Assembly (NCBI GenBank): GCA_030141605.1
Contig: JAQGDQ010000113.1
Coordinates: forward strand, 1 to 64,000
DNA from: Tubiluchus corallicola
Taxonomy: Eukaryota > Priapulida > Priapulimorpha > Priapulimorphida > Tubiluchidae
Reading direction: 5' to 3'
Length of the DNA stretch: 64,000 bases
In this document: in pieces, positions 18,447-56,730 of the stretch
Layout: every line of letters begins with the position of its first letter
Numbering within the stretch: position 1 is the stretch's first letter
Position numbers and translations under genes: made by a program
The notes under the pieces: model-generated
Told to the model about the DNA's origin: nothing
What the model saw: only the letters and a program-made list of their open reading frames with translations
Databases searched by the model: none

Positions 18447-21400
18447 TTATTCTCCTCTGTAGACAGTATCAACGTCAGCAAAACCCCAAATTGGTTCCTC
18501 AATGTCGTAGTGGTACAGAGTTCTTGGTTGTTCGTAGTTGTTGCCTTCTCTAAAAATAACAACAACAAAAACGTAAATCTACAGCCCTACAGAATAAGTT
18601 TTCTTATAATGTCTATAAAACTTACCAGCTAGTAATACGCTAAGTTTTCTTCGTTAATTCGCACTTGCTACACACTTAATGAACACGGTCAGCTACAATG
18701 CAGTAGGTAAAACCATAATTAACCTACCCCCAATAACACTTGTTGGCAATCGCGTGTCATAATCAAGACGTGTTTCTTAATTGTTCCAGTGTGCAACAGT
18801 GCATAGCCCGTTTGTCGCGTATGCAAAGTGGCATCGAAAAGAACGTGAGTCTTGTATTTTACGAATTTGTGAAATTTATAGTTCTGCTTTAATACCACAT
18901 CAACATGTCACAAGACAAAAAGTTATTTTCAACGGTGATGCAGAACATTCAGTAAATTTTTAAAAACGACTTTATAATTGAACATGATAGTGAGGCTATC
19001 AAAATCAGCGGAAACTGTTTTGCTTGTAGCAAAGTTAGACTCATATGTTCTAAAATATCACAGATAGAACCAACCGCTACTTGCCATAAAAGTCAAACAA
19101 ATGGCAATCAGCAATTCACGATTTCTATGCCTGACATCAAGCAGGTCACAAGAATTAATATATCTCGAACTGGCAAAATCATAATCACCGGAGGAGGCTT
19201 CAAAAATGGGCTGTAACGAAATTGGCGAATCTGCTGCAATTAATGCGAGAGGAGATTTCTGAGAGACCTACAACAGGTGACTATGACCTAAATCGTAGTA
19301 AAGATCCTTCGGATTTAGACTTATTCCAAAATACAACATCCGATACAAGTTATGTATCAATCTTTAGCCAAGATTCTGAGCTTGAAACTATGAGTAGTAC
19401 GACACCAACAAATACTACTAGTACTATGCCTATACGCAGCGGAATTAATACAAATAATTGGCAAATGGACTTAACAAACTTTAACAACACCACATCAGCA
19501 ACACGATACGAATTTGTCAACTGCAACCAATGAAGTTAAGTCCATCGGAATTCAGTACGAAAACACACAAATTTCGTCTGGGAGAAGTGAATTTAATGAA
19601 AATTCAATTAAATCAACTGAAACTCAATGTACCCTAAACAACTCGTTTACCAGAGCAGCTGCAACACAATGCGAACACGATAAAGCTCGATTCACATCAG
19701 TGGAAACGCAGTATGAACGCAACGAACAATCACTAGACCTTCTTAAAGTTCAACGTGAACATACATCTCTAAATGAAATCATTCTAACAGATTTTGATTC
19801 ATTTCCAAGAGAAGTAAGCCTAGAAATAAGTACCATAGGCACTTTTAAACAAGAAGTATTGCTACTACGTCTATCTCTAGAGGAAAACAACATGAAAATG
19901 AACCACTTGCTAAACGAAATGACTAGCTTGTTTGTCAAAGTGCAAAAATAAAATAAAATGATGCAGCCTGCTGTGATTACTACTACGAACACTGGAAATC
20001 ACGACTACGTAAACATTTCCTACGGCAACGCACAGGCAAGTCAACGCAGTAATACAGATGCTTCCAACGACAACGTACAGGCAGGTCAGCGCAGTAACGC
20101 AAATGCTTACCACGGCAACGTACAGACAGGACCACGCAATACACGAATGACGAGGAATCTATGGGATACAACTAGCACACTCATCTTAGGAGATTCTGGG
20201 GCATCGTACGTGAAACCCCGACAGATTGGCAAAAACATTCAGGTACATTCTTATAGGGTCTCACAATTCATAAATTAGACTAAAAAGTGATAGATAGCAT
20301 GCACATACTAGATTGCATAATGTTGTTCTATGTTGAGGCATAAATGACGTGTTGAATTTTTACAAAACTAATAGGCAACTAAATGTTAATGATTTCATGG
20401 CAGTAACGATTGAAAAAGTTTGATCTTCGTCAGTAAAATAAGTTCATTAGAGCTCATTAACAGTTACTTGAGAAACAGAAAACAAAGAGTTAAATTATCT
20501 GCAAATACCGTCTCAGAATAGCTAACATTACAGCAGGGCATACCACAAGCACACTTTTGGGTCCCTTACTTTTCTGTCTTTATATTAACAATATATTTAA
20601 AACACTAACACATTGTAATATAACACAGTATGCTGACGACGCAACTATATATATTTAGGCCACGAAAATCTAGCAACAGCTCAACGACTTTTTTGAACAG
20701 GACACCGCAAAGATTAACATAGCATTTACCCATTTAAAACTTAAATTAAACAGCACCAAAACAGATTTCATGGTTCTTTCGCCATTCTCAAATGACAATA
20801 TAACTAATACTTCAATAAAAGTTGAAAATAGCATAATAAAACAGAAAAACAAAGTAAGTTCTTGATATCTGTGCAGATAACAAACTTTCTTGGGATAACC
20901 ATTTCAATAAAATTTACGACAAAATGGCATGCGGAACGCCCTACTTACGGCAGGTAAAAGGTCAATTAACTAAACAGACAAAGTTATTAATTTTTCAAAC
21001 TCTCATTTCACCGCACTTTTTATACGGATGCACACTTTTTCATGAAGTTTCAAGAGACTATAACAAACTAAATAGTCTTCAAAATTATGCATTAAGATTA
21101 GTCGCTGGCTATACAAATAAAACGTCTCTCATCACAAATCAAACCTCTGCAACAGAGTTAAGAACAATGTTTAAAATCCCAATTTTACAAGCACATAAAG
21201 ACTTCTACACAATCCTCTTTTTATATAAATACATCAACAATATTAACACGCCCTTCATCAAAAATAAGCTTCCACTCCTCTTGGAGCCAACGTTAAATCC
21301 AAGAACACACAATATTAAACAAATGCGCACTGGTAACAAATACGGCAACAATTCTGTCACTAAACAAGGAGTTCAACTTTGGAATACCCTGCCATCAAAT

Positions 21401-21732
21401 TTAAAACAAATCAAGTCTTCTGACGAATTCAAATCAAAATTAAAAATATATACATTAAATCGTTCTGAAAACCCTACATACGTAAGCGATAATATATATT
21501 CATCCTCAAATTTTATTTACCCACGTCCATTTTGAATTGTATGTATATATTGTATATAGTCTATTATAATTTGCGTGTAACATTATCATGTATGTTTTGT
21601 TTTAAATTTTTGACACAGTAGTTTTTAGTTTGCACTGGACGCATTTAACAGTTGTGTGAATTTCATTCTCATGCTGCGATGCTCTTTTATGCTTTTATAG
21701 TTATGAATATCGATTTTTTATGGCAAATAAAG

Positions 21733-21778
<46 letters not shown>

Positions 21779-23839
21779 GAAAGCAATCAAATCATGGCCT
21801 TAGTAGCTAAATTTAATTTTTAAAGCTCAACGGAATTCAATCACACTTCTCCGCTATTCTTCTTTTTTGTAGCTACAGTTGACTACAGTTCGTTATAGGT
21901 AAAGCGGCCAAAAGATGAATCTTCCTCATGACACCTGGCGGTGTGGGGTGGATATGTTGTGTAGTGTTAATGGGTCAGTGTTGTTTTGACTGGTGATCAG
22001 TAAAATCGTGGTAGCAAGAAATGAAAAAATAGAAACCTGCCACTCTTGAGTAAGATTACTATGTGCTCTACGTGTAACTACTTACATGTTTTGCTATAAT
22101 TTGAAACTCTTTGTCTTTTTATACACATTATTTTGCTAGTCTTGTTTAAATAATAGCAAATGCAAAATTCGAAAAATATTTTGCCCCTGGATCAAGAGCT
22201 AGATTAATATTTGAACCAACGAAGAAATCTGATATAACATATTAAAGAGTTTCTAAAGGCGTTTGCTTCAAAGGATTGCCCAAAGAGTTCCTGGTTTCGA
22301 ACCTAGGTTTTGCAGCCAATTTTCAACAGTTCTTTATATATCAAACAGTAATTTTGTCTAATATCAGTTTGGTTAATTTATATAATGTTATTATACACAC
22401 CTATATCTGTACTCATATCCACGTGTCTTTGACGCTGTCTCAGAAGCCTCAGCCTGGTCGCGGGTAAACAGACTTCCTGACGCACTGCCCTGCCTGGTGT
22501 AAGTCAAACTGCTTGATCGTTCACCCTCTCCTCTTAGACCACCACTGCTGATTGGTCCATACCGGGTTGTTGTAAAATACTGTGGTACTCCAGTGACAAC
22601 AGGAGAACTACCCACTCTTCTACCACTTCCTGTCAAATGGATATTTTGGGCAACCTGAACAGTAGCGCCACCACTACGACGTGGCTGAAATCCAAAACTA
22701 TCAGTGCCAGTTGACACAGTCTGTACTTTTCTAGTCTCAAAGCCTAATGTACCACCTCGTGCACCAGTCACAGCCCCTCTGCCAGTTCCTGATGTTGCTG
22801 TCCTTCCTCCTCTAAATGAGAACGTCTTCTGACCAGCACCTCCTACTCTGCCATCTAACCCACCGTCAATATCACTAGAACTGGAACCGCTTCTTCTTTC
22901 AGAAAATGTAAAGGAGGGATATTGTCTCAGTCCAGTTCCGCTTTGCACTTGAAGAGAAGCCGCAGAATCAACTCCGCCTCCACCTTCTCCAACAGCAACA
23001 CCAGACCTTCTTTCAGTAAAGGTGATGGAGGTCTGCCCCCTACCTTTTCTACTTCCTCCACTTGTGATAAAATCTTGTAAACCACCCACAGAAGACCCAG
23101 TAAGGCCACCGTCTGTGTCGCTAGACGTGGAGCTACTTCGTCTCGCAGTAAAAGAAACTGAAGAAGATTTCCTTTCTCCGTCTTTGCTTTCATCTTGGAA
23201 AAAGCCTCCCAAACCTACCTCACCACCACCACCACCGTCACTGGCCCCACTAGAGCTGCCTTGGAAAAAGCTGACAAAGTCACTACCACTGCCGTCACCG
23301 CCATCACTGCCCGCACTGGAACTGCCTTGGAAAAAGCTGGCAAAGTCACTACCACTGCCGTCACCGCCATCACTGCCCGCACTGGAACTGCCTTGGAAAA
23401 AGCTGGCAAAGTCAGCCCCACCACTATCAGCACCGGCATCACCACGACCGCGAATGCCACTTTCACTGCTTTGGAAAACGCTTCCAAGGCCAGCAACAAC
23501 GCCACCACCATCATGACCAGTACCACCAAAACTACGGGTATGGGTAGTTTCGGTCTTCTGGAACGAAGTTTGGCCTGATCCTAGTCCACTTTGTGCATCG
23601 TCAGCTATTAGAAAACCTCTTTCTCTGCCTCCTCCACTGCTCAAGAAACTTCGTCTTTCGCTGAAAGAGGACGTATCGGAACTATCATGTCCACCGTCGA
23701 TCGCATTGATATCAAACGATGCCTGTCCTGCCCCTGGCAATAGCTTCACCAGTTCTATTGGTGGCTGTTCGTCTTCTGGCTCTGGTGCCCCACAGGTCAA
23801 CATTATCAAATGGATCAGGACAAGAAGAGACAGGTTCAT
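18447..23839 (-). CDS. Gene C: secreted Gly/Ser-rich repeat protein with conserved C-terminal module
   Basis: Two coding exons: 22401-23839 (ATG at 23837-23839) and 18447-18549, joined in phase 2, giving 513 aa. I do not recognise the family. Seen: signal peptide (first about 17 residues, MNLSLLVLIHLIML), a Gly/Ser-rich region with repeated FSERRS/FTERRS/FTARRS motifs, and three tandem 22-residue units around SFFQGSSS (23256-23453). Then comes the 60-residue block from YFTTTRYGP (residue 421) to RGYEYRYR (480), and the last exon YEQPRTLYHYDIEEPIWG. The last exon was assigned by its acceptor, phase and close match to gene D. The intron is about 3.85 kb and holds a LINE and a SINE. An acceptor 5 bases before the ATG shows a leader intron. 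Inferred extracellular structural protein. Confidence 0.85.
18780..21780 (+). mobile_element. Degenerate LINE (CR1/L2-like) inside the intron of gene C
   Basis: Opposite in strand to gene C. From the left: ORF1-like frames (about 18.8-20.28 kb) rich in Asn/Thr/Gln, ending in a STLILGDS segment that resembles the start of the SGNH-esterase domain known from CR1/L2 ORF1 proteins. Then a broken reverse transcriptase with SYLRNRKQRVKL, LGPLLFCLYINNIF and the catalytic QYADDATIY (about 20.63 kb). Then an open 203-codon C-terminal segment at 20924-21535 (LWNTLPSNLK). The 3' end is an AATAAAG followed by a (TA)n tail at 21735-21776. The endonuclease part is missing between ORF1 and RT. Stops and frameshifts show it is inactive. 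Confidence 0.75.
21735..21776. repeat. (TA)n tail of the LINE
   Basis: Pure TA dinucleotide run directly after the LINE 3' end. Confidence 0.95.
22185..22335 (+). mobile_element. tRNA-derived SINE-like sequence in intron of gene C
   Basis: Contains aaaggcgtttgcttc and a B box ggtttcgaacc in tRNA-like spacing, similar to the SINE-like copies at 11180 and 29636. Ends were not determined. Confidence 0.4.
23256..23453 (-). repeat. 66-bp coding tandem repeat in gene C (three units)
   Basis: Two neighbouring units are almost identical in DNA and the third differs slightly. Each encodes 22 residues around DFASFFQGSSSAGSDGG. The near-identity points to recent slippage or unequal exchange within the gene. 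Confidence 0.9.
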
Positions 23840-24062
23840 GTTGACTAAAAAGGCAAACCAAAAAGAAAATAAATTGGAAGCAGCTAATGACTACTTGGTG
23901 TTATTAGTAAAAGTGAACATATATGGAATTTCCAGGTATTATATAATTCAAGTAAATAAATTATTTAAAATGGATTCTTACCTTTACAATTTTGGGGAAC
24001 CCCAACGCAGAAAGCTCGATCGGCTATACCATCTGTGGACTGCCAGAATGCTTGTCATTTAC

Positions 24063-24069
24063 TCTTATA
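24063..24069 (-). promoter_or_regulatory. Candidate TATA box of gene C (TATAAGA)
   Basis: Followed by a likely leader exon ending at 23982 with donor gtaaga. An acceptor just before the ATG (exon resumes at 23844) completes the leader intron. Same layout as genes D, E and F, though this TATA is a variant form. Confidence 0.55.
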
Positions 24070-25364
24070 CTACCTCGCTCCTGTTATAACCCACTTATCG
24101 CCCCTCCTTGTTTTCCCTTTTTTCAAAATCATTTTCCTACGCCTGGACAAACTTCAATAACAGCAATAATGAGAGCAAAAACTGATTTACCTTGAGCTGA
24201 GATTGTGCGAAATTTATGCTAAATTTCATTCAATCATTTTATAATTTCCTGAAAGCAAATTTCAACCTTATCATGCATCACAAACTTTTTGCAGTAACGT
24301 AAATCTAGCCTATTTAAAACCGAACTTCTTTGGCCTCTAAAACATAAACTTGTGTGTATTATTTACCCATAAATTGCATTGCACAAGTCATTATAATGGT
24401 TTCCCCACGAAAATCTCTGCACACCTAAGAAAGCTGACGATAATTATATCCTACTTTGTGATTCTCAGTTTCTCTTCCCATCTTTGTGCATTGCATCTAC
24501 ACGAGAATGGAACAAACTTTTAACTTGCGTTCAATTGCGGATTTTAACTGTTTTAAAAGTACCCTTTTTATCATAAAGTTTTATTACCTGGTGATTTTTA
24601 TTGTATGCTTATATTTTTATTGCAGTCATTTTAACTGTAAACTTGTATTACAGCTGCTAACAATAATTTGTCGCTTTTACTGCGCTCCACAAATAAGTTA
24701 TCATCACGCTTATCAAAAACATTTCTACTCTCTTCTCTCACCTTCCCTACCCCACTCAACATAAATGACATAGATTTTCTGTCATAATTCATTACGATAC
24801 CTCTTCATTACCACGATCTTTCTATGGATCTAAACAGAAGCCATTCTATTCTGAAGTGTAAATTTCTGAAAATTTAATATTTTTAATTGAATCGTTGTAT
24901 GGGATACTACATTCACATTCAGAACGAAACAATTTTGCTGCAAAGGAAAAGTTTCTCTCAGGTATATATTTTTCTGCTCACGATTGTGAAATATAACCGA
25001 AAACATATCAAGCAATCGACTGGTTATAATGTAGAAATTTTTTTTGCATGTACATAATAATAACTATAATAATGCAGCTTTCTCAAATTTGCTGTCATTC
25101 TTCAAATCTGAAGCAAATTTGGTGTGTGAATTTGTAAGAGGCTTTAAATGCGCATTATAATAGAGTCTGACTTCTCATTTTATAATTGATAATGCTGTAA
25201 TAATTTATAAAATTGAAAGTAACATCTAGTTGTCGCAGTATATAAGTAAAATTTTGTGGAAAATATTTTGTACACTTCGAATGTTATTTTCTATGGATTG
25301 ATTCTGCTGTGATCATCTTCTTGATAGCATGTTTATATCAATTAATAAATTTATCTATTTGTCT

Positions 25365-25503
25365 GTCTGTCTGTCCGTCCGTCCGCCGTCCGTCCGTCAT
25401 CCATCCATCCATCCATCCATCCATCCATCCATCCATCCATCCATCCATCCATCCATCCATCCATCCATCCATCCATCCATCCATCCATCCATCCATCCAT
25501 CCA
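25365..25503. repeat. (TGTC/CGTC)n-(ATCC)n microsatellite
   Basis: Short TGTC and CGTC runs pass into about 25 copies of ATCC. Ile-His-Pro-Ser open frames here are artefacts. Confidence 0.97.
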
Positions 25504-26819
25504 TTCTATATATCTACATTTTCATTTGCACTATAAAACACAATCTGTTTGTGAATCCACATAATAGCCACAACCAAAAAATTTAAATCAGTTGGAGAAT
25601 GACATTCTCTCGAAGCGAATAGGAAATCAAACTTAATTACTGCTGTTATGTAAGCGTTAGCTTTACCGGAATTATTAGCTTGTGTTGAAACTATGAGTCA
25701 TTACAGCACAACAGAAAATGCGCATATGAAAAATAGAAGAAACAATAAACGAAAAATGAAGAAGCTGCAGTAATAATACGCTGTTAACTTAAAGGAAAGA
25801 ACAAGTCACTCAGTATGTTGGGTTTATTTTACTATTATCAATTAAACGTAGAAAAATACAACAAAGAAATTTGCAAAAAACTCTCTATAAAGTATAAATT
25901 TAAAATATACTATCTCTGAATAGAAATTTTCAGACGTGGTGGTTGCCGCCATTCATTTAAAAATCATGACGTAACTGGGAGGCTTCGTGGCGTTCCGTTA
26001 GCGCGCGCTGCTTAAACTACTTGAAACTTCTGCAGCTTACCTAATGTTCACGCAAAAATATTTCAAAATTAGTTATCTAATTTTTTGTAAAAACTTGTTA
26101 CACTTTTGATAATGATTGACAGTGCGCTACTTTTCTTTAAGACGAAGGACGTCATTGGAAAAAGAATGGGCGTTCAAAATGGGAGCGGCCCACGCATGAT
26201 GTGATCGCGACTTTAAGGTGAGTTTGCTAATTACACGAGACGCTTATTGCAGTTTTGTTACTAAATTCTTCTATCATTGAAATAAGCCTAGCGTCCTAGA
26301 AGGCTTAGCCTTTCCTTTAAATTTTGATTGTTTATAGTAATATATAAAGTATAAAATTAATACTTTCTAGAGTAAAGGTGTGAATCGATTACGCAACTGA
26401 CGTGCAATTTTACAACGCATAAGACAGACGACAGACAGATCATGAATTCAATTTTGTTTGCTTTTGCTTCTCTTGTAAACGGTTCTATTGTTTTTGTTAT
26501 GATGTGGCTGTTTCGTTTTTCAAAAATAAGTGTGCTAAATTTTAATCGTTATTCAAATTTCAAAGATAAGAATTCACTGCCACCACAGTCACAAACGACC
26601 TTAAAACGGTATACAAATGAGATTGCTGTACAGCTTGCAAAAACATAAACTACATAAAAAATTCACAAAAGTTGTAGTCGTTGCATAAAACTTTAATTCC
26701 TAAAGCAATGACGTCAAAATTCATAAACAGGGCGACTAGATTACTAAGTTATTTTGTTGCTAATCTTAATTGCTATGCAGCTCAATAATAGTAGGGCCTA
26801 TTAGATGCAAACCTAATCC

Positions 26820-27050
<231 letters not shown>

Positions 27051-27989: not shown

Positions 27990-28204
27990 TTACTCTCCTC
28001 TGTAGATATTGTCAACGTCAGCAAAACCCCATATTGGCTCCTCAATGTCGTAGTTGTACAGAGTTCGTGGTTGTTCATAATTATGACCCTCCCTAGAAAA
28101 TAGTAATAGTCGCATATGTACTGCTGAAGGAAATGTTAGCACTGCACTTTAATAATGCCAGTAGCTGTTAAAGTACATGCAGTATATTTCACCTTAACAA
28201 CGAT

Positions 28205-28283
<79 letters not shown>

Positions 28284-29499
28284 GCAGCAGCAGCAGCAGC
28301 AACAGTGTTGTCATTGTTTACTTAATTCGTATCCACAGTACTTGCAGCTAAAACACCAAAAGAACAGACCAGTAATTTCAGAAGTTATTTCCTAACTCAA
28401 GTAACAACGTATTACATTTGTTCAATAAGAGCAAATAATGAAAGCAGAGGAAATGGTTTAATGTGTATACATACCTGTATCTGTACTCATATCCACGTGT
28501 CTTTGACGCTGTCTCAGAAGCCTCAGCCTGGTCTCTGCTAAACAGACTTCCTGACGCACTGCCCTGTCTGGTGTAAGTCAAACTACTTGATCGTTCACCG
28601 TCTCCTCTTAGGCCACCACTGCTGATTGGTCCATACCGGGTTGTTGTAAAATACTCTGGTACTCCAGTGGCAACTGGGGAAGTGTCTACTCTTCCACCAC
28701 CGCCCTCCAAACGGACATTCTGGGCAAATTGGACAGCAGCGCCACCAGTACGACGTGGTTGAAACCCAAAGGGTTCAGTGCCAGTTGACACTGTCTGTAC
28801 TCGTCGGGTCTCAAAGCCAGATGTACCACCACGACCGCCGGTCGAGAATGTCTGAAAATCAGCCCCTCCACCAGTTCCTGATGTTGAAGTCCTTCCTCCT
28901 CTAAATGAAAACGTCTGCTGGCCTGTACCTCCTACTCCGCCATCAAAGCCACCGTCAACGCCGCCTGAAATGGAGCCACCTCTTCTTTCAGAGAATGTAA
29001 AGGAAGAAGATTGTCCTTGTCCAGTTCCACTTTGGCCGTCCTGGAAGGCTCCAAAGTCACCACCACCTCTGCCACCGCCAATGGTTTGGCTGCTTCGAGA
29101 CTGCTGAAATGAAAACTGTCCACCTCCTACACCGTCTCCTGCTTCACCGGTAATTTGGAAGCCACCGTCTGCACCAGCTCTTCCTCCACGGGAGAAACTT
29201 CTCCTTTCGCTGAAGGATGCGCTCCCAGAGGTACCACCACCAGCACCACCTCTAATTGCATTTATATCAAAAGTTGGTCTTCTATCGACAAATACCTTCA
29301 GATCTTCAATAGGTTGAGTTTGAAGTCCTCCGACTCTAACACCAGCTCTCACTCCCTGCAGGTCACAGTTTGGACAGTCTCCAGTTCCACCAGTAATTGT
29401 TTGACATTCGCCGTTTTGGCATTCGGTGCTTGAAAACGTTTGCCGTAGTTCTTGCGCTAAAGCACCAACGGCCAGGAGAACCACAAGTAACAGTTTCAT
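27990..29499 (-). CDS. Gene D: secreted Gly-rich protein with conserved C-terminal module
   Basis: Exons 28475-29499 (ATG at 29497-29499) and 27990-28092, joined in phase 2; 375 aa. Unrecognised family; closest relative is gene C. Signal peptide MKLLLVVLLAVGALA, then a short segment with four Cys (spacing CX4CX10CX2C) absent from C. Gly-rich middle with FSERRSF, FSERRGG, FETRRVQ and FGFQPRR motifs. The 60-residue block runs from YFTTTRYGP (283) to RGYEYRYR (342), and the last exon encodes YEQPRTLYNYDIEEPIWG plus an Asp/Tyr tail. The intron holds a CAA/CAG microsatellite. A leader intron ends at 29506, just before the ATG; the leader exon and TATA lie at 30154-30244. Inferred extracellular matrix-like or adhesive protein. 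Confidence 0.88.
28206..28305. repeat. (CAA)n-(CAG)n microsatellite in intron of gene D
   Basis: About 26 CAA units followed by six CAG units, between the two coding exons. Confidence 0.97.
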
Positions 29500-31435: not shown

Positions 31436-31439
31436 TAAT

Positions 31440-32165: not shown

Positions 32166-32169
32166 CTTC

Positions 32170-34619: not shown

Positions 34620-35187
34620 TCAGATGAGCCCTAAAACTTTACACTTGAGCTTTACAACGTCATCAGATGAGCCCTAAAATTTTACACTTGAGCTTTACAA
34701 AGTCATCAGATGAGCCCTAAAACTTTACACTTGAGCTTTACAACGTCATCAGATGAGCCCTAAAACTTTACACTTGAGCTTTACAACGTCATCAGATGAG
34801 CCCTAAAATTTTACACTTGAGCTTTACAACGTCATCAGATGAGCCCTAAAATTTTACACTTGAGCTTTACAACGTCATCAGATGAGCCCTAAAACTTTAC
34901 ACTTGAGCTTTACAACGTCATCAGATGAGCCCTAAAATTTTACACTTGAGCTTTACAAAGTCATCAGATGAGCCCTAAAACTTTACACTTGAGCTTTACA
35001 ACGTCATCAGATGAGCTCTAAAAATTTACACTTGAGCTTTACAATGTCATCAGATGAGCCCTAAAACGTTACACTTGAGCTTAACAACGTCATCAGATGA
35101 GCCCTAAAACTTTACACTTGAGCTTTACAACGTCATCAGATGAGCCCTAAAACTTTACAGTTGAGCTTTACAACGTCATCAGATGAG
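34620..35187. repeat. 43-bp satellite, 13 tandem units
   Basis: Each unit contains tcagatgagccctaaaa, then ttacacttgagctttaca and acgtca. Variants: ctttac or attttac, and cgtcat or agtcat. Units 1-3 and 7-9 carry the same order of variants, suggesting duplication of a multi-unit block. Units 10 and 11 are the most divergent. Confidence 0.97.
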
Positions 35188-36262: not shown

Positions 36263-37025
36263 TAGTGATTTTAATTAATGATTGTTTATGCAACTTTACA
36301 AAACATTCACAACTATCAACAAAATAAATAATTACAATCGTGGTCACACATTGCCATTCTATAACGTGTGATAACGTTGTTGTTCATCTAACTGTTGACT
36401 ATGAAAAGCAAAGCCTTCAAATGGTCAACGAACTCTTCTGCTTATTATGTGAGAAATTAGTTCATAATTTCCGGAAATCTGATAATATTAGTGCTTTTAT
36501 AAATTTGGTTTGCACCAAGGTCACCTTAACTTTTGCAATAATGGGCAGTATGATTGTACTTCAATGTTTAGTTATTTGCCCCATTAAATGCTGGGGATAG
36601 TGTCCTAGAAACACGTATTAATGCCCACCTCCTCTTTCTAATCATGCATGATTTATTTTAAATTTGATTGAGTAATGGACTGATCATTTTGGTTTAAAGT
36701 ATATACAGATATTTTTCAATGCTAGCTGTTTATATCATTTCGTATAACTATGTCAACATTCGATTTCAAATCAAGTACCAGTCTTTATTTAGTATTCAAA
36801 ACTAACATTCAAGCCTTGTAAACATTCGTGAGCAATTCATAAAAAATTCTTTCATAACTTTCTCTATTTAACTTTCCATGGTGAAAATTTTTATTACAAA
36901 CAGTCTTTATTACAAAATATTATAACAGTAATTTTCTTCTTTTTTATTCTAAGGATTTTTAATCTTTACCACTAAACAAGTTCGATTGCATCTCTGGTAA
37001 ATGGAAGAACTGGTACGGCATGCAC

Positions 37026-37975
37026 TTACTTCTTCCTTACCCTGACACACCAGATTTGTTCTTCGTGATCGTAATCAAAACGTTCCCTTAAGTGGCGTTT
37101 CCGTAGTATCCGGATGTAGTATCCGGAATACTTATGCGTTTATTGTTTGCAACGCACCCGTCTATCAGACCTGCGTTATGCGTTATTTTTCTGCAGCTAT
37201 TTCCAATTGATTTTTATTCCGCAGGTGGATAACGCGTACGCATTCCGGATGCTATGTAAACGCCACTTTATTTATTCATAATCACGTTCAATGTTGGAAA
37301 AATAATGGCATAATTAGTTAAACAATAATATAGAAACTGAAAGAAAACATACTTATCATTTAAACTGATTACTGATTTTCCAATTTAATAACTGAAATTA
37401 ATTAATCTGCCTCTGCGCTGATTTTAAGTTCTAGAACAGTTATCATGCAAAAATAAATTGCATGATGCTGCCACCTTGTGCTAAGAAATGAAAATAATAA
37501 AAAGACTGTCATTTTCTTATCTCAAAACAGAAAAAGAGACTGATATTGCATCTAATTTTACTAAGACCATTACTTATAAATTGTAATTTAAATGCTTGTT
37601 TGTTTGCTTGCTCGTTCATTCGTTTCTTTGTTCATTCATTCTCCCATTCATTTATTAGCTCACACTGCTTGGCTTTGTCACTCTTTTCATACGTTTGTTC
37701 ACTCATTAATCCCATTCCCAACATTAACTTATTCATTAAACAGTTGAAGTTAAAGTAATCTAGCTAACTGGCCAGCTGTTTGTTACCACATGGATCAGCT
37801 TTTATGGTTGTTGGATAGCCATTAATTGATTGGTTCAACAGTGGAGGAACTACAAAATGGTTTGTTAATAATGCGTTTATTTTCCTGTAATCATATTAAC
37901 AGCCATGCGTTTTAGTAGCATCTTCTCTAGCTTCGACCCGGTCCGCCCTGAAAAGCGAGCCGGTAAATAAGTGAA
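37026..37975 (-). pseudogene. Gene H: decayed copy of the 3' half of gene E
   Basis: Two relic exons. About 37887-37975 matches the end of exon 2 of E (SLF, VEAREDATKTHG), but has an in-frame TAA where RGYEY should be, and its donor GT is changed to GA. At 37026-37290 the last exon keeps RFDYDHEEQIW and VRVR, but IWG has become IWC, a stop follows, the acceptor AG is changed to AA, and a MITE (37091-37267) splits the DYE/QPRE region. Intron and downstream sequence also align with E, so this is a segmental duplication of about 1.9 kb that has decayed. No exon 1 was found. Confidence 0.85.
37091..37267. mobile_element. MITE with inverted ends and TTA duplication (PIF/Harbinger-like)
   Basis: Ends agtggcgtttcc and, inverted, agtggcgttta, with a subterminal atccgga on both sides. 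The element is flanked by TTA at 37088-37090 and 37268-37270. A three-base TWA target duplication and this size fit non-autonomous PIF/Harbinger elements. Inserted in the last exon of pseudogene H. Confidence 0.8.
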
Positions 37976-39981: not shown

Positions 39982-41878
39982 TTACCACCCTGCTTGAGCG
40001 ACATAGGTAGGAGCTGGTGTGGGTTGCACTTCCACAGCCCTTACTCTGACACCCCAAATTTCCTCTTCTTGGTCGTAATTAAAAAGTTCTCGTGGTTGTT
40101 CGTAGTCATGTCCAAGACTGAAAAAAATAATGTAGTTAAGTTAAGCAATAGTATGAACTAGTTAAATAAAGGAGTCATTTTAAGAGATATTGTTCAGACG
40201 ATATTTTTGGTTTCCTCGTCTCACAGTATTGAAATTTAATCTTCCACTATGATGCTACTATAGTTGTAACGTAAAAGCAAATTGTATGATGCTGTCACCG
40301 TGTGGTTATATGTGCAAATAAATATCTGAATTCACGAATCTAATGAAAATGCAGGTAACCCGAACTCACACATTGAAAATGTTATCTGGATTGGTACACT
40401 ACTTAAGCGACTGACTGGGCTAGTTAGCTCGTTGGTCAACTAGTCAGCTAACCAATAACTACTGCTGCCTTGATTGGCTCAGTTGTGAAGGAGCCACAAA
40501 GTGGTTTGTTAATTTATGTTTATTTACCTGTAATCATATTCGTAGCCACGCGTCTTAGTAGCATCTTCTTTAGCTTCGGCCTGGTCTACACTGAAAAGTG
40601 AACCAGCAGCACTTCCCTCGCGCGTGTACGAGACGACGCTGGACTGTTGTCCACTACCAGAGATTCCGCCCTCCACTACAGGACCGTAATTAACAGTGGT
40701 GAAATATTCCGGTGCTGCTGTAGCTGGTTGGACTGGAACTACTGCCACACCTTCCTGAAATTTTAAAAATGAGCGTGAAGGATTATGACTAATTAAATTA
40801 AGGACTAGCATTTTCCACAGTTAAATAGACTTTGCTCAACAAATTTGTAACTCAAATGCATACACGTATTTTAAACTTAAACTCTGCTGAAATTTTGTTT
40901 ATTGTTTGCGCAGTTTACAATCGGTATGGTCTTTACTAATTACCAGTGTGTTGTACTCACCTCTTGAACCGTGAATTCTTGCCTAGCTGGCTGTGCTGCC
41001 ACAATTACCTGTGTTCCTGGGGCGGTATTAACCGTTTCTGTTGTCGTTACAGTTCCTACTGCTCCTGTTTGTGGAACTGTATTGACTGTAATTCTTCGTA
41101 CACCCACTTGGTTAACACCACCGCCACCAAGTCCCAAGTCTGTGGCACCAAATTCACGTCCAAGTCCACCAAAGGTACTGCTTAGTTGCAGTCCAGGAAT
41201 TTGATTACGAACGCCCGTCACTGGTACGCTGATTGTTCTTTGCACCTGTTGTGTGCCTCTGAAATCGACTCCAGTTCTCAAAGGCAGGCCAACTCCCAAA
41301 TTTACCCCAGCTCCTAATTGTCTGTTAACGGCAACATTGACAGCAGCTCCTAGTTGTTGTCCTCCAAGTCTAGTCCCAAGTGGTGATCCAATGGAACTAG
41401 TTCCAATAAGTCCAGTCCCAAGTTGTTGTCCAACAACTCTAGTTCCCAGCTGTTGTCCAATAACTCCTGTTCCGAGCTGCTGTTGTCCAACCCCAAGGGT
41501 AACATCAGGTGAAAAGCCTGTAGTAGTGCCTCCAAACAGTCGCTGTACCGATTCAAGTGAGTTGGTGTTGCTGAAATCTCCAGCAAACGGTCCTCCACCA
41601 GGTTGCGAAAGAGCCAGTTGGTCACGGAATGCATTTGGCAGCGCCGCTATTCTATTAAGGTATGAGCTACCGCCAAAATTTTCTCCAACAACACCTTGTG
41701 CAAAATTGTTGCGTCCAAAAGAACCGACTGTACCAGTAAATGTCCCAGCAGTGGCCAATGGACTAAGACCACTGATGCTGCCAAGAGTTGACGACGGCCC
41801 CAATCTCCCAGTCTGCCCGACAAGAGTTTGGGAGCAAGTTGCTCCTAACATCATCGATAACAGCAGCAGTGTTGCCAT
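39982..41878 (-). CDS. Gene E: secreted Gly/Gln/Val-rich repeat protein with conserved C-terminal module
   Basis: Three coding exons: 40961-41878, 40528-40754, 39982-40117 (phases 0 and 2); 426 aa. Start at 41878 (MATLLLLSMMLGATC, a signal peptide), because an acceptor lies 11 bases upstream (exon resumes at 41889); upstream Mets in the same frame would be in the leader intron. Middle region has tandem GQQLGTGV-like decapeptides and Gly/Val/Thr-rich sequence, unlike C and D. Exon 2 carries the 60-residue block from YFTTVNYGPV (323) to RGYEYDY (382). The last exon has GHDYEQPRELFNYDQEEEIWG and a longer tail ending in AQAGW. Unlike C and D, repeats and module are on separate exons. Function unknown; extracellular structural role inferred. 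Confidence 0.87.
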
Positions 41879-45538: not shown

Positions 45539-45559
45539 GTCTGTCTGCCTAAAAGAATA

Positions 45560-48175: not shown

Positions 48176-48179
48176 TAAT

Positions 48180-49108: not shown

Positions 49109-49109
49109 G

Positions 49110-49440: not shown

Positions 49441-51180
49441 TCCTGAGTTATAGACCAACGAGAACAAGACCCACAGTTACACGTTACATTATACTTTCAC
49501 GACCAATGCGGATTATGTAGTGAGCAATTCGATAATCACAACCAATGCGGATTCATTTCAATTAGAAGGCAAAATGGCAGGAAAAAATACTGAACATCAA
49601 CTGTGATACCAATACATTTATTATCTCCCATTTTTAATACTGTACGTATTTTATTGCAAATAATTATTTTGTGCAGTGTTTTTGTGTCATGTAATTTTTG
49701 AGTTCAGGTGGGAATGAAAATGATATAAGGAGCTTTCATAGTAAAAGTTTTCTTAAGCTAAACCAAGTAGTGCTTTCCTTTTTATTCTTTGTGTGAAACC
49801 CTTCAAAGTTTACCATCTGGCGCAGGGTAATGTAGGTAGTAGTTAGTCTATTAACTAGAGGAAATTGTAATGCTCTGCTTACCTTATGGTGAGTGACAAC
49901 ATGTTATAGCTACTATATAAACGAACATTTTCATGGAACCTGATTAGTCTGATTTATTTATCAGCAACCATGATGATGATGACCGTGACGACGCGTGTAT
50001 AAAAGCCCTTGAGTTGCAGGAATAGCTGAAATCATTTCAGTGGTTTCCATATTAACCCTCTAGACTTAATGATAAACCAAGCCTGCTTCCAAATCTTTGT
50101 CAGCACAATTGTGACGTCACAAGGTGTGAAGACCCAGTTTCACGGCGTAGTTTTCAGTAGGTGTTTCTCTTCTTAGCTTTGCTTATAAAAAGAAATATAA
50201 GTGCCGTGTTCTATTTGCAAATAGTCAGTTACGTAGGTTCAAACTGATGGATCAATTTCATTAAAAACCCAAAATATGTGGACCACTTCTACAGTTTAGT
50301 TGAAATGAAAACAACCTGTAATATAGACCTGTTTTATGTTGTGCTGACGTTTTAACACTCTTTAGTGGTGCTTATACTTGAGTTGGTGTATTTACTGTCT
50401 CATGTGCCAAAATGAATTACTCTTAAAAGGGCGATTTGAAAATATTTTGCATTGTTAGTTCATTTTTCACAATTGCATTGGCCATGACAAGAATTGTTTG
50501 TGAGTTTTTAAGTATTTAATACTATGATATAAGTTAATGTACTCTATTACAGGCAGGCTACTTCCAGTTAACTAAGACTGCAGAGGTTTTAGAAACAAAC
50601 TTATAAGTACAAAATTGAAGTTTCACAAGAATTTAAAACAGTAGCACAACACTAACTTGAGTCATGATTTATTTGACAGCTGACGTTTCAACAATATTAC
50701 TTTAACGTCGAAAATCAGTTGTGAAATAACTCAGTTGTTAAAGTTAGTACTGTGCTAGTGCTTTTTTTCTTGTACGGAAATGTGCGAAACGTTTTGGGTG
50801 TTTCATCAAATTGATAAGCGCTAATAAAATAATTCTTGTAGTAAAACCGACGGTAAATAGGGTTAATTAGATTAAGTTAGGCCACATTTTATAAATAACA
50901 TTTAGACATTGTTAATATTGTCCTATATGTTAACTCATTCATTAAACTAGAGAGCAAGTAAAATATGTAGCACATGAAAAAGAACAATCATCGGACTCAG
51001 AAATTTTATTTATTTTCTGCCATACAACCGGTAAATTTGGGCAAGGTAATAATTATTATTTACACGTATACTACAGTCTAAGAAATATTTGCTCTTTGGT
51101 GTAAAGCTATAAACATAACATCAAAACTTCATAAATATTGTTATTATTATTATTCTTGTTATAATATTGTGAGATGCAAA
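49441..51180. other. Intergenic with a foldback element
   Basis: No gene recognised; the right end should be downstream of gene F. Foldback listed separately. Confidence 0.45.
50641..50758. mobile_element. Foldback (inverted-repeat) element
   Basis: Left arm tagcacaacactaactt...gatttatttgacagctgac and right arm, inverted, tagcacagtactaacttt...gttatttcacaactga pair over about 45 bp around a short centre. MITE-like, family not identified. Confidence 0.65.
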
Positions 51181-51202
51181 CAGTTATGACAATGATAGGG
51201 CC
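51181..51202 (-). promoter_or_regulatory. Conserved 3' UTR element of gene F
   Basis: mRNA-sense tggccctatcattgtcataa, about 335 bp after the stop; tttatgca context shared with E. Confidence 0.5.
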
Positions 51203-51536
51203 ATGTTCTTCCTACAAGTAGTTTATGCAAATATATTACAAGGTGATCATAATCTCAATAATAACAACAAAAATGCAGCATCTAATCAATCACAATATAC
51301 CACAGATTCATAAACGAACTTTTTAGAGTAAATCGGTCAGCATAATTTGCGTTTCATTATGAAAAAATTAAAATTATAACAAAGATTTCGGTGCACAGAA
51401 ATCAATACAATATTGTACAACGACGCAGTAGGCCTACCCAACTTCTTGTAAATTTAAAATACAAACGAAGATTATTCAAAAATCTTCAGCTTGTGTAATA
51501 GTCACCATATAATTTAGAATTGTACGGTTTGGCTTC

Positions 51537-54500
51537 TTAGTAGGCTTTTTGTGCTTGTGCGCCTGCAGCTACCGCCACCTGTCTGGTTCCCCATATCGGC
51601 TCTTCTTCGTCATAATTGTAATTTTCCCTAGGTTGTTCATAATCGTGCCCTTGTCTGTAACATGACATATAATATGTAACACACCCCGCCTGTTAATTAG
51701 TTTGTATCTGCATTTATTTAGTTCTCTTAGTGCTTCAGTAGCAACAATCAAGATGCTTTTGTTTGGCTGATTTGGTAATAAAATGTACATATTAAATCTA
51801 GTGAAAGAAAATTCTGTTGTAATTTGCACTAAATGTATCGTTTATAGTAACAACAACTACATTGTTTGTAAGAACGACAACAACAAAAACTATAATGGGC
51901 ACTAACACTGTTTCACACGGCAGCCCAAAACACTTTCAAATGTTTTTACCAAACCGTTTGGACAGGTAGTTCGAAGTCACTTTCAAACCGTTTTGTACTA
52001 AAATCTTTTGAGCGGTTTGACGTCAACAATGCATACAACTCGTTTTTTGTTTGACATACAGTTTTGAAACAAACAAGAAACGAGTTTTAGCATTGCCGAT
52101 GTCGCACTGCTCAAAGGATGTTGGTACAAAACGGTTTGAAAACGATTTCAAACTACCTACCAAAATAGTTTCAAAACAGTTTGATGAAAACGTTTTGCCA
52201 TTGTTGTTCTTATAAAACGATGTAGCTGATGTTACTATAAACAATACATTTCATGTAGATTACAGCAGCACTTTCTTACACAAGATACATTTTATTAATA
52301 TAATACATCTTTTATCATAGTTTATCAAATCAATCAAACAAAAGTATCCTGGTTGTTGTTAATGAAACTTTTAAGACAACAAAATAAGAGCAGACACAAC
52401 TACAGCATATAACATAATTTCAAGTAGGTTATACCGCCAAAATGTTACTTTTCGCTGAATTGTGTGTTATAGTTACCTACTTATGAGTTCACTCTTTTTT
52501 AAATGTTGCTGTTGTGGTTGTTGTTGTTGTTGTTGATGATGTTGTTGTTGATGATGTTGTTGTTATAGTTGTTGCTGCTGTCGTCGTCGTCATCGCCTTC
52601 GGTATTACCGTTACTGCTTGTTCTGATGAAATAATATGATTTATTGATTATACGCTACCTCGTTATAAGGTTTCGTATTGTAATTGTTGCCAAACATTAA
52701 CAACTCCTCTTTGCTATACTTGGTCCTCTTATCTTATTTATTTGTTTGTTAATTTCTTATTTATTTATTCATTCATTTACTTATTCTGTCAAGAAGGGCT
52801 ATTTCTCATTTTTGTTTTTTTTCAGTGTTGTAATACAACCAACTTGTAGCTCTTGTAACTTTTTTGTTACACTACATCTTCGTGTCCACATTCTACTTAA
52901 GTACAGGGCAAGCTTTTTTGCTTTGATTGCTTTCATAATGCACTTAGCAACACTTTCCTATTTCGTTTACTAATCGGTCAATATGCTAAATTTTGTGACA
53001 GCTAACAAAGAGGCAGGTGCTGCCCTCTCGCGGTGTAACTATTAATTTTTTGTTGCAGCAGCTGTCTGCTACATTAAACAATTCAAAGCACATTACGGTG
53101 TCCTGCCATTAGTACTTGTCTTGCCGGAACAAATTAAAATATTAATAGTTTTTTTACCGACGGACAAGTCCTCTGCTCTGCGGGCGATGTACACGATCAG
53201 ATTCCTGCACTTCTCTAAAAAGGGAGATTTGCTACTCTGTCTAGTTTTACTACTATCTGCGTACTTAATACTACTGTAGTTTTGCCATATTTTTTTGTTT
53301 TTAGAACTGACACACCAGTTGTATGTATAACAAGCAAGAAAGTTGTGATTTTATTTATTAAAAGTACTGAAAACATTATATTGACATTTAGAAAAATATT
53401 GGTTGAATTTTTCTTTTTAAAATGAAAAAAGGTAAAAGTTACAATATTAATGAAATGCCAAGCGAGTACTACACGTTGAACTTATGTTTGCAAGTATAAA
53501 TTTTCAAAAAAATAGACATCGTGTAGAAACTTCAGACATCTAATTTCTTGAGGAGAATGACATTGGTCCATTTGGTACAATGACATCAATTTGGCAGGAG
53601 GCATTCTGGCAAGCTTGCAATTTTTAGGTGTCGTCATTATCAGTTCATTGAAGCTATTGTGATTCATTGTGACATCAGATATCCGACTATCAAGTTGGTG
53701 GAGTGCAATGCTGAACGCTTTTAAGGATTTTTAACCCAAGAATTTTACTAAGGGAATCAAAAGCACTACCACCGTCTTGTCTGAGTTGTGTAGCTAAAGT
53801 GGTCCTCTGGCATGGAGATGCAAACATAGACACTTATGAAAACCTGCAAAGACAAAGTGTTTTTGAGAGAAAAGGGAAAACTAGTAGATTATCCAGGGAA
53901 AGAAAATAAGTAGTTCTAGAATTATAGTTACTAAAATGGAACAAATCAAAAGTTCTGATTGAGTAAAGTTAATAAAGAAGATTAAAAGCTTAATGGTTTA
54001 GATAGCAAAAGATGACAGAAAAGCAGCAGAAAAACCTCTTGTGCATGCATTTGTGTCCAATTCCTCGCTTGCGGTAACGAAAGAGCAGATAAAGTTAGCA
54101 GTATGAGTAGAGTCCCATACATCGTCGTTGAAACGACATGTAGCTGTTCATGAATTGACATTGAGGAACGTTCCGTCTTCCCATTTCTGACACCAGTGTG
54201 AAGAAAAATTATTATGTTTTATCGTCTCCATGGCCAGTATCTTTTGTCTCCAGTTTAGAATTTAATAACTAGCTAGTCAGATTTCATTGCATTGCATCAT
54301 TGTGTGCTCTATGCCAGGTTACTGCAAACTGAGGTGTAGAAGCCAGATTACACAAGGGCTTCGTCCGTGGTTGTCATTCTTTAATGTGGGGAATAGGTGA
54401 AGCAGTGGGTTTAAGCAGTGTATCGTGCCAAAATTTTTCTTGTATGTGCTTTTTTCACAGTGTTGTTATACTGTTTGCAACTTCTACTTGTAGTGCATAA

Positions 54501-56730
54501 TTCTGCATTGCTACAAGTTGTGGAGATAAAATGGTTTGCCATTATTTAAGTATAATGTTACTGTGTTAGTATAATCAGTTATGTGGTGCAAAACTGAACA
54601 TTGCGGAATAGTTTGAAGACTGCGCGATATTAATGTGTTGTATGTGATAAACGAAATATTGCGCAATATTATTGTCAATACTCTTGCTCCATAATCTACA
54701 ATTGACAATTGTATTATGCGTGTGTATACCTCAAAGGCTTCATACGAGCCGCCATAGCTGATGCATTTTATTATAATCCTTAAAGTGTATTTTACTAACT
54801 AGATTTGAGCATTTGTATCAAAAGTTTATCACTATTTGCTAGTACATGTATTTCCATTTCTCGATTTCATTATTTTTACTGGTATAATTGACGCATCTTA
54901 ATGCAAATAATAAATGATTAAATAAATAAATAAACAAGAAAAATAAAGTAAAATAAAATAAATGTCTTACGTTGTCTTATGCGTTTAGTCAATTATCCGT
55001 AGTTCAAGTTTACAAGGTAAATGATGTACTTACGCATGCTCGTACTCATATCCCCTCTTCTTTGTCGCTGATTCCTGTGACTCGGCTTGATCAGCGCTGT
55101 AAAGGGAACCAGCAGCTGTGCCTTCTCTTTGGTAAGAGATGCTGCTAGATTTCTTTCCCTCCCCAGATATGCCTCCCTCCACAATTGGTCCAATTCTGGT
55201 GGTGGTGAAGTAGCCAGGTCTCGAAGTTACTGGCTGAACTGCTTCCGGCCTCTGTTTTTTGCAAAAAAGGAGCAAAATTATCTATTGGTGAAGCTAAAAA
55301 TAATTTAGCAAATAAAAAGTGCATTCGTTGTTGAAACATACGAATCATTAAACGAATTATTTAAGGGAAGATGACAACAGCACAGCAAAATTTACAATCA
55401 CTCAATAAGCCAATATATATTTTGTATTCATAAGCAAAAAAGTTAGGAAAAATATCATATATAAATATTTAGATTTAGAGCTAATTTAGATCAGGAATGG
55501 AAGCAAATCTTGTACTTTTAAAAATATTTCTTTTTGCTTTATTCTTTTTAACATTAGAAAGAGTACTTTTGAATTGAAAAGTCAAACAGCAATAAATTAA
55601 GTTTAACTAATTAAACTAATTAGTAGTAGTAGTTTATCGTCCAAAGACCAAATAAATTCGAAATTCACAAAAATTAGGCATCAAAAGTAAACATTAAACT
55701 ATACACACTGAAGTACAGATAGGTTACGGAATTTGCAAAAAATTTTAAAATCCTTGGGATAAATACCCAATTTTGCTTCATTTTAAGGCATTTTATACTT
55801 CAGACAAGTGATCATGCTCACTGATTTATTATAATAATGAGTAAGCAACACTAGATGGATGACCATTGTGAGACCTGTTAAAAAGTAATTTCATCACTTA
55901 ATAGTCTTATATTTTCACTTGTTTTTAAAATGGTCACCATTATTATCAGCTTGCTACGGTGCACCATATTTGTACATAAGGCTGATACCTACCTTGTAAG
56001 ATGTAGTTTGTATTACCACTGGTGCTGAAGCTGGTGCAGAGTAGGTTGTGACTGGTGCAGTGTATGTGCTGCCACCACTGTAACTACTACCACCACGGCC
56101 ACCACCGCCACCACCGCCATAACCACCGCTATTGGCGGCAAGGAAGCCACCGTGGAATCCTGCTTGGCCTTGATCCCAGAGGGCGTCGTACGTACCGTGC
56201 TGGCTTCCTGCTGTGGAACCGGGTCCACCACTGAAGCCAAACCGGTTACCGCCGGTAACTGCCACACCCACTCCTCCGGTACCTGCTGTCTGGGGAAACC
56301 CACCAATGGCGCTTCCGTAGACCCTCCCGCCCTGGAGTCCGTTGCCATACGTGGTCGGGATGCGGTTCAGAGCGCTTCCATAACTTCCTCCGACAACGGT
56401 GTTCAAGCCGCCTCCATAAGATGGAACGCCCAAACCACCGCTTCCATAAACGCTTCCACCTCCTCCTAAACCACCACCGCCATAAGTGCCTCCTAAACCA
56501 CCACCGCCATAAGTGCCTCCTAAACCACCACCGCCATAAATGCCGCCTCCACCCACTAGCTGTTGTCCAGAGATGCTACCGCCTAATCCTCCTTGAGCAA
56601 TGAGGTTAGCTCCTGTGATACCGCCCTGAAGACCGCCCTGACCTATAAGAGCACTTCCAGAAAGATACGTTTGCGAAGAGACATCGTAGATGGCAACGGC
56701 CACCACGAAGAGAGTCAAACAGCTCTGCAT
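51537..56730 (-). CDS. Gene F: secreted Gly-rich repeat protein with conserved C-terminal module
   Basis: Exons 55993-56730, 55034-55251, 51537-51654 (phases 0 and 2); 357 aa. Signal peptide MQSCLTLFVVAVAIYDVSS, then LIGQGGLQGGITG-type repeats shared with gene G, three 9-residue YGGGGLGGT-like units, a Gly/Tyr-rich region and a TAPVTTYSAPASAP stretch. Exon 2 has the 60-residue block from YFTTTRIGPI (260) to RGYEYEHA (319). The last exon, 3.4 kb away, reads GHDYEQPRENYNYDEEEPIWG, then an Ala/Gln-rich tail ending QKAY. It was assigned by acceptor, phase and homology. Leader-intron acceptor 8 bases before the ATG (exon resumes 56739). The large intron holds a foldback element. Extracellular structural role inferred. 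Confidence 0.87.
51893..52225. mobile_element. Palindromic MITE in intron 2 of gene F
   Basis: Strong inverted repeat: ggtagttcgaag...ctttcaaaccgttttgtac on the left and the inverted ggtagtttgaaa...ttttcaaaccgttttgtac on the right, with ctttgagc further in. Outer ends and target duplication not resolved. Confidence 0.75.
52505..52600. repeat. GTT/GAT-rich trinucleotide tract
   Basis: Imperfect GTT runs with GATGAT and CGTCGT interruptions, in intron 2 of gene F. Confidence 0.85.

What the first reader, a model, noticed from the sequence alone, without database searches (positions are those of the whole stretch)
18447..56730. Cluster of secreted proteins sharing an undescribed two-part C-terminal module
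Genes C, D, E and F have unrelated low-complexity middles but the same ending: a 60-residue block with no gaps in any of the four (YFTT, YGP or IGP, GGxxGxG, SSxxxYxRxG, GSL(F/Y), DQAE, RGYEY), a phase-2 intron, then a tail exon with YEQPR, a Tyr/Asp/Glu stretch and IWG. I recognise no known domain. Such conservation beside fast-evolving repeats suggests the module does a fixed job, such as assembly, cross-linking or anchoring, while the repeats set material properties.
Basis: partly seen in the sequence, partly recalled or inferred. Interest (0 to 1): 0.88.

Follow-up and report, generated by a model that had tools for sequence, protein, structure and literature searches.

The report
New tyrosine-rich module in secreted proteins
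An animal genome carries a large, previously unnamed family of secreted-type proteins that keep the same 90-residue tyrosine-rich, cysteine-free block, split by an intron at one fixed place, while the repetitive parts around it vary freely, as one would expect of building blocks for a secreted material.

Summary
Four minus-strand genes (56730-51537, 41878-39982, 29499-27990, 23839-18447) each encode a signal-peptide-like start, low-complexity sequence, an ungapped 62-residue block, a phase-2 intron, and a tail exon. A decayed fifth copy lies at 37961-37007. One correction: the middles of the genes at 29 and 23 kb are related.

It is part of something larger. The same assembly (343.5 Mb) holds module exons at 37 places on 27 contigs; 36 of 37 have a tail exon downstream. 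GT sits exactly 8 nt after the module in 37 of 37, and AG at one column in 36 of 36 tails, which validates the join by comparison, without transcripts. The module is not strictly C-terminal: repeats lie before it, after it, on both sides or on neither. Pfam, NCBIfam and PDB show no known domain. One relative turned up among 5.8 billion proteins; it ends at the same junction.

Best reading: an expanded family of structural matrix proteins whose Tyr-rich, Cys-free core is the assembly or cross-linking node. Family and gene structure are shown; function is inferred. Species, tissue and fold are unknown.

The parts
55993..56730 (-). Gene G56 exon 1: signal-peptide-like start and Gly-rich middle (35% Gly)
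   Evidence: ATG 56730, donor GT at 55992, phase 0
55034..55251 (-). Gene G56 exon 2: module (62-residue block 55227-55042)
   Evidence: AG/GT borders, phase 0 in, phase 2 out
51537..51654 (-). Gene G56 tail exon to stop
   Evidence: QGHDYEQPR...EEPIWG, phase 2
40961..41878 (-). Gene G41 exon 1: signal-peptide-like start and GQQLGTG-type middle
40528..40754 (-). Gene G41 exon 2: module (block 40721-40536)
39982..40117 (-). Gene G41 tail exon to stop
   Evidence: GHDYEQPRELFNYDQEEEIWG
28475..29499 (-). Gene G29 exon: signal-peptide-like start, Gly/Ser/Arg-rich middle and module (block 28668-28483)
27990..28092 (-). Gene G29 tail exon to stop
   Evidence: EGHNYEQPRTLYNYDIEEPIWGFAD
22401..23839 (-). 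Gene G23 exon: signal-peptide-like start, middle with a 66-bp tandem repeat, module (block 22594-22409)
18447..18549 (-). Gene G23 tail exon to stop, after a 3851-bp intron
   Evidence: EGNNYEQPRTLYHYDIEEPIWGFAD
37007..37961 (-). Decayed tandem copy of gene G41: module remnant 37961-37826, intron remnant 37497-37438, tail remnant 37085-37007; in-frame stop in the module and no GT at the donor place
   Evidence: 81%, 75% and 75% DNA identity to G41

Best explanation
These four genes belong to a large family of secreted-type structural (matrix) proteins. Each protein is a signal peptide plus a fixed core of about 90 residues, encoded by two exons that join at the same phase-2 intron, with variable low-complexity segments before the core, after it, on both sides or on neither. 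SHOWN by sequence: family, exon structure, purifying selection on the core among close copies, change of place of the core relative to the repeats. INFERRED: secretion from gland or epidermis into an extracellular material. The Tyr-rich, Cys-free core is the node that joins chains, by self-association and/or by oxidative tyrosine (dityrosine or DOPA-type) cross-links, while the Gly/Gln/Ser-rich segments act as spacers that set stiffness and length. Gene duplication with repeat turnover gives a palette of proteins that can still co-assemble because the core is kept.
For: Module exons at 37 places on 27 contigs, 36 with tails; a second search with a divergent core found 36 of these 37 places and no new two-exon member. 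Splice sites at one fixed place in 37 of 37 and 36 of 36. Core nearly ungapped; G12, P13, G21, G23, R33, G35, D45, Y59, G66, P72 and Y78 invariant in 27 aligned cores (27 of 36 were given to that call). dN/dS in the core 0.11 for G29-G23, 0.055 for C485-C475, 0.10 and 0.11 for C1631 against G23 and G29, against 0.31-0.37 in the alignable G29-G23 middle, which has 144 gap columns. Seven columns are aromatic (Y, F, W or H) in all 35 cores examined; 0 Cys. Cores 10.5% Tyr; pooled N-terminal spacers of 80 aa or more 3.3%; Tyr nearly absent from the middles of G41, G29 and G23 (0-0.3%). Signal-peptide-like starts in 33 of 37 by a crude rule, plus G56 and G41 on their first exons.
Against: No expression, proteomic or biochemical evidence. 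Signal peptides were judged by a crude hydrophobicity rule, no trained predictor. Twelve to fourteen of 36 members have no spacer of 80 aa on either side, so not every member is a core plus long repeats. Some spacers are Tyr-rich themselves (G56 6.4%; C711 and C1796 13.2%, C2110 7.7%), and the pooled spacer figure is weighed down by C1631 (1185 residues without Tyr), so Tyr is not confined to the core. Structure prediction from 4 and 5 rows gave no fold (pLDDT 50 and 48). In G29-G23, dS is lower in the core (0.27) than in the middle (0.74 and 1.19), so part of the likeness of these two neighbours may come from gene conversion. Some pairs give higher dN/dS (0.58 at dS 0.017; 0.42 for C1302-C195, where the tail row is shifted by a deletion); the median over the 27 pairs with dS below 1.6 is 0.37.
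Confidence: 0.55

Rival explanations
1. The core is a binding domain that anchors each protein to a polymer or mineral of the matrix (chitin, glycan, carbonate) rather than to other copies of itself; the repeats face outward.
For: Conserved aromatic columns and invariant Gly/Pro/Arg/Asp fit a ligand face as well as a self-assembly face. In some members the core follows almost directly on the signal peptide (C466, C1302, C195, C1496).
Against: No similarity to a chitin-, carbohydrate- or mineral-binding domain showed up in Pfam or PDB. No long acidic run in the module exon; an acidic run only in part of the tails.
Confidence: 0.25
2. The family is a set of secreted defence, venom-like or signalling proteins; the core is the active part and the repeats are propeptides or mucus anchors.
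For: Large, duplicating secreted-type family; short members resemble secreted peptides in size.
Against: No Cys in 36 cores, whereas most animal defence peptides and toxins of this size are disulphide-bonded (recalled). Among close copies the core is under purifying, not diversifying, selection. Gly/Tyr/Gln-rich spacers, with an N-terminal part of up to 1205 aa, suit structural proteins.
Confidence: 0.1
3. The likeness is mainly recent duplication and gene conversion, not a function kept by selection.
For: G29 and G23 are tandem neighbours with lower dS in the core than in the middle. Some copies look like alleles or redundant contigs (C1382/C807 dS 0.017; 13 same-scoring copies of the C2 member; C195 and C1302 with identical modules).
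Against: Only 27 of the 630 pairs of 36 cores have a computed dS below 1.6, yet 27 aligned cores keep 11 invariant columns. A relative in another record keeps 48% identity and the same exon end.
Confidence: 0.07

Closest known systems
Spidroins (spider silk proteins with conserved non-repetitive terminal domains; PMC2928236, abstract and outline seen; PMC11143275 and PMC6235870, search listing only)
   Same: Secreted multigene family; hyper-variable repeats beside a conserved non-repetitive domain thought to run assembly; duplication and repeat turnover.
   Different: The core profile found no spidroin chain in PDB (that PDB holds spidroin terminal domains is recalled). Here one Tyr-rich core, not an N- and a C-terminal domain; its place relative to the repeats changes; it is split by an invariant intron.
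Silk-like structural proteins across animals (PMC4944945, passages read), including shematrins and KRMPs of pearl oysters
   Same: Signal peptide, Gly-rich low complexity, lineage-specific genes.
   Different: That class is defined by composition; here a defined homologous core unites the family. The published predictor was not run.
Arthropod cuticular proteins with short Tyr motifs GYR/YLP (PF02756/PF02757; PMC2932725, passages read)
   Same: Secreted, Cys-poor, low-complexity proteins in tandem arrays with conserved tyrosines, for which cross-linking was considered.
   Different: GYR/YLP are short motifs; here a 90-residue core. No GYR/YLP hit at E<=1 in 27 cores or the four proteins.
Molluscan shell matrix proteins (Lottia proteome, PMC3374290, passages read)
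   Same: Low-complexity secreted proteins without known domains.
   Different: My first guess that the genome is a limpet's was not borne out; six motif strings of the core occur in no paper of the library searched.

Membership tests
Spidroins | Homologous spidroin N- or C-terminal domain | tested here: not met
   Profile of 27 cores against PDB: one match up to E 10, a PKD domain at E 0.14 (that PDB holds spidroin domains is recalled); no spidroin family among Pfam hits
Spidroins | Conserved non-repetitive block beside variable repeats in a secreted multigene family | tested here: met
   secretion rests on a crude rule
Silk-like structural proteins (class by composition) | N-terminal signal peptide | tested here: inconclusive
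   Crude rule: 33 of 37, plus G56 and G41 on a separate exon; C1738 and C2 not found
Silk-like structural proteins (class by composition) | Gly-rich low-complexity region | tested here: inconclusive
   Met in many (G56 middle 35% Gly, C161 and C475 C-terminal extensions 56% and 50%), not in all (C711 4%, C1882 4.6%)
Silk-like structural proteins (class by composition) | Expression in a material-secreting tissue | not testable with these tools
   No transcripts or proteomes at hand
GYR/YLP cuticular proteins | PF02756 or PF02757 motif | tested here: not met
   Not among hits at E<=1
Any Pfam, NCBIfam or PDB domain | Significant profile match of the core | tested here: not met
   Pfam: 27 cores scanned; six families with best E-values 0.0018-0.12, each in at most 4 members and unrelated to one another, cut-off scores not printed by the call; four full proteins: one sub-threshold hit, UPF0506, E 0.1, outside the core. 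NCBIfam none. PDB best E 0.14
Molluscan shell matrix proteins | Comes from a mollusc | tested here: inconclusive
   No molluscan haemocyanin domain (no control genome rang); creatine-kinase-like genes present, which molluscs are recalled to lack

The most novel reading that the evidence does not exclude
A new class of animal structural protein: one portable, Cys-free, tyrosine-rich core acts as a universal joint that can sit at the end or in the middle of otherwise unrelated low-complexity chains, so that dozens of different secreted chains can be linked into one composite material by the same tyrosine chemistry. The invariant intron through the core would be a relic of its origin rather than of exon shuffling.
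Probability: 0.35. Interest if true: 0.78.

Novelty: new variant of a known kind. Interest (0 to 1): 0.62.

Why it matters
If true, it gives a defined, expressible 90-residue unit that can be tested directly for self-assembly and tyrosine cross-linking, and a family of natural chains in which the spacer varies while the joint is constant: a natural experiment on how repeat sequence sets material properties. It also supplies a sequence handle (core profile plus splice signature) for finding such proteins in other animals, where Gly-rich repeats alone cannot be aligned.

Tried and rejected
Limpet or mollusc origin: my first guess, from memory of genome size and composition; not supported. Species identification stayed open: no hits to COX1, molluscan haemocyanin domain (60), GH6 (75), annelid linker domain (76), innexin (78) or GFP (97). 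Only the COX1 search rang in the control genomes (8 of 14); the other five rang in none, so those absences are weak. Two single-exon frames (C1461, C1820) match the phosphagen-kinase family; for C1461 the top PDB sequence is a two-domain arginine kinase by summed score, and the best single-domain matches are creatine kinases; a third, intron-split locus (C1070) was not read. That this argues against molluscs and arthropods is recalled. A rhodopsin-type receptor near the window looks to me, from memory, like a trissin receptor; with creatine kinase and no innexin this would fit an ambulacrarian, but I hold that loosely. A search for 18S rRNA gave no usable answer.

Structure: two AlphaFold jobs (4 and 5 rows, module exon only) gave pLDDT 50 and 48 and no strands, only a helix at 55-64 (55-63 in the second); too few rows to tell disorder from lack of data, so no fold search was run. 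Relatives sought in viral contigs with the G29 module and in bacterial and archaeal genome contigs with P0001: none. Literature: six motif strings in 5.39 million papers, 0 papers; other searches gave no paper that I recognised from the listings as describing this family. PMC12621633 (tubeworm cement) was seen as abstract and outline only. Supplements could not be searched.

A tree of 35 cores has only 5 of 32 inner branches well supported, so the order of duplications is mostly open.

Rejected: known domain; chance; tail exons belonging to other genes; gene conversion as the sole cause of likeness.
Full report
WHAT IS THERE. The window is the first 64 kb of contig C1408 (613 kb) of an unnamed 343.5-Mb assembly with 2344 contigs. 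Four minus-strand genes were modelled by reading the DNA and checking borders. I name them by kilobase: G56 (56730-51537, 357 aa), G41 (41878-39982, 426 aa), G29 (29499-27990, 375 aa) and G23 (23839-18447, 513 aa). Each starts with a hydrophobic signal-peptide-like stretch, continues with low-complexity sequence, and ends with a block of 62 residues, a phase-2 intron and a tail exon. Module and tail align without a gap from the first conserved residue to IWG in all four. G56 and G41 carry a further phase-0 intron just before the module; G29 and G23 do not. A fifth copy, related to G41 (81%, 75% and 75% DNA identity in three pieces), is decayed.

CHANCE AND CORRECTION. Profiles from the four copies hit nothing in 8606 reversed or 8606 shuffled ORFs of the fetched loci. 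The claim of unrelated middles fails for one of six pairs: G29 and G23 share 71% identity over 45 aa (E 3e-16). They are tandem neighbours.

A GENOME-WIDE FAMILY. A search of the whole assembly with the G29 core returned 94 matches at E<=10, module and tail exons counted apart; the tool calls such counts lower bounds. After iteration over the fetched loci there are module exons at 37 places on 27 contigs, 4 of them in the window; C195 and C1302 have the same module sequence, so 36 sequences differ. I counted once a member found with the same score on 13 contigs (5 of the 13 were fetched; their modules are the same). C1382 and C807 differ by dS 0.017 and may be alleles. The true number of genes may therefore be slightly lower, or higher if the search missed divergent ones. 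Some lie together (C2157 three, C2047 three, C485, C1796 and C466 two each). A last search with a divergent core (C1496) found 36 of the 37 places (not C1399) and no new two-exon member. In it, two weak matches already seen at E 0.17, on C448 and C593, reached E 6e-4 at 31% identity. The C593 one is a Gly-Tyr-rich protein in which the second half of the module and the tail lie in ONE exon (profile E 1.3e-5, with strong composition bias). If truly related, it supports that the two exons encode one continuous unit. On a tree of 35 cores G41 and G56 fall in one well-supported group of four with members on C1738 and C1796 (100/98); G29 and G23 pair weakly (85/0); only 5 of 32 inner branches are well supported.

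SPLICING WITHOUT TRANSCRIPTS. Exactly 8 nt after the last module codon, 37 of 37 module exons have GT (for two, C1399 and one of C2047, the module end was extrapolated by two columns); no other of the 24 offsets looked at exceeds 12 of 37. At one alignment column 36 of 36 tail exons have AG; the next best of the 40 columns looked at has 20 of 36. These two places make a phase-2 join. The 37th module (C1399) has no recognisable tail within the fetched 4.5 kb. Intron lengths run from 263 to 3851 bp, median 889.

ANATOMY. In 27 aligned cores (27 of the 36 were given to the call), G12, P13, G21, G23, R33, G35, D45, Y59, G66, P72 and Y78 are invariant. In 35 cores (C1302 dropped because a deletion shifts its tail), seven columns hold Y, F, W or H in every row, Tyr averages 9.5 per core, and there is no Cys. 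Over 36 cores Tyr is 10.5%, against 3.3% in the pooled N-terminal spacers of 80 aa or more (12 genes; C1631 alone gives 1185 of 4165 residues and no Tyr, while C711, C1796, C2110 and C206 have 7-13%) and 6.5% in C-terminal extensions of that size. In that call four donors had been taken 6 nt early, which changes those four cores slightly. By the same count, 10 of 36 have a long N-terminal spacer only, 10 a long C-terminal extension only, 2 both, 14 neither. G56 and G41 fell into 'neither' only because their middles lie on another exon, so 12, 10, 2 and 12 is the fairer count; three C-terminal extensions are cut by the end of the fetched stretch (C1738, C2110, one of C485). The longest are an N-terminal part of 1205 aa (C1631) and a C-terminal one of 951 aa (C2157). 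So the module is a fixed unit around which low-complexity sequence comes and goes on either side.

SELECTION. In the core, dN/dS (Nei-Gojobori) is 0.11 for G29-G23, 0.055 for C485-C475, 0.16 for the C466 pair, 0.11 and 0.10 for C1631 against G29 and G23; it is 0.58 for C1382-C807 (dS 0.017) and 0.42 for C1302-C195 (shifted row). Only 27 of the 630 possible pairs have a computed dS under 1.6; the median of these 27 is 0.37. The alignable G29-G23 middle gives 0.37 with 144 gap columns, and 0.31 for the last 150 columns, against no gaps in the core. Core dS there (0.27) is below middle dS (0.74 and 1.19), so gene conversion may add to the likeness of these two neighbours.

KNOWN OR NOT. The four proteins and 27 cores match no Pfam family convincingly, no NCBIfam family and no PDB chain (best E 0.14, a PKD domain). 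Of about 5.8 billion proteins, a single-sequence query found none and a 27-row profile found one, P0001: 112 aa, E 1.7e-13, 48% identity over 70% of the first row, from a 3269-base contig of a source called lgn. It has its own signal-peptide-like start and Gly-rich spacer and ends with RGYEYYYR, the last residue before the family's intron. That is independent evidence for the family and its junction in another record, whose organism I do not know. Six motif strings occur in none of 5.39 million papers searched; published sequences are mostly in supplements, which were not searched.

MECHANISM. I take the core to be the joint of a secreted material. Shown: secreted-type family, constrained Tyr-rich Cys-free core, changeable repeats. 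Inferred: association of cores, oxidative tyrosine cross-linking, and repeats as spacers. The closest working analogy is the spidroin plan of conserved assembly domain plus variable repeats (PMC2928236, abstract), with tyrosine chemistry as considered for Tyr motifs of insect cuticle (PMC2932725, passages). It works like these but belongs to neither: no homology was found to spidroin domains or GYR/YLP motifs. Two AlphaFold runs on the module exon (4 and 5 rows) were uninformative.

LIMITS. The species is not identified, so the material cannot be named. Signal peptides were judged by hydrophobicity only. Expression, localisation and biochemistry are untested.

Noticed in passing
window 37961-37007 (minus): Decayed tandem copy of gene G41 with recognisable module, intron and tail remnants.
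   Followed up: yes
G000 C1209:1084343-1085401 and C2157:258582-259253: Two members with long C-terminal extensions share a second ending, CSFYIG...C...L.LIA.GYGVRRI..IW.
   Followed up: partly
G000 C593:1192-2001 (L051) and C448:497983: Weak matches with module second half and tail in one exon; the C593 frame, the one read, is Gly-Tyr-rich: possible intron-less relatives.
   Followed up: partly
L043, G000 C593:11983-13266 (minus): A neighbouring Pro-rich frame with its own long repeats (LDQLNWLAWQQPSFKHQGYQD); no likeness to the core seen.
   Followed up: no
G000 C2 and 12 other contigs: One family member occurs with the same score on 13 contigs, three of them at the same coordinate: the assembly seems to hold redundant contigs.
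   Followed up: no
L047:5560-6963 (C1408:69560-70963, minus): Open rhodopsin-type peptide GPCR frame just outside the window.
   Followed up: partly
window, among the 66 ORFs of alignment A4 (e.g. 62081-62329 for reverse transcriptase): Reverse-transcriptase and integrase fragments and six ORFs matching cytochrome P450 (which does not list the ORFs; for 62081-62329).
   Followed up: no
window 34620-35187: Tandem array of a 43-bp unit, 13 copies at 96%.
   Followed up: no
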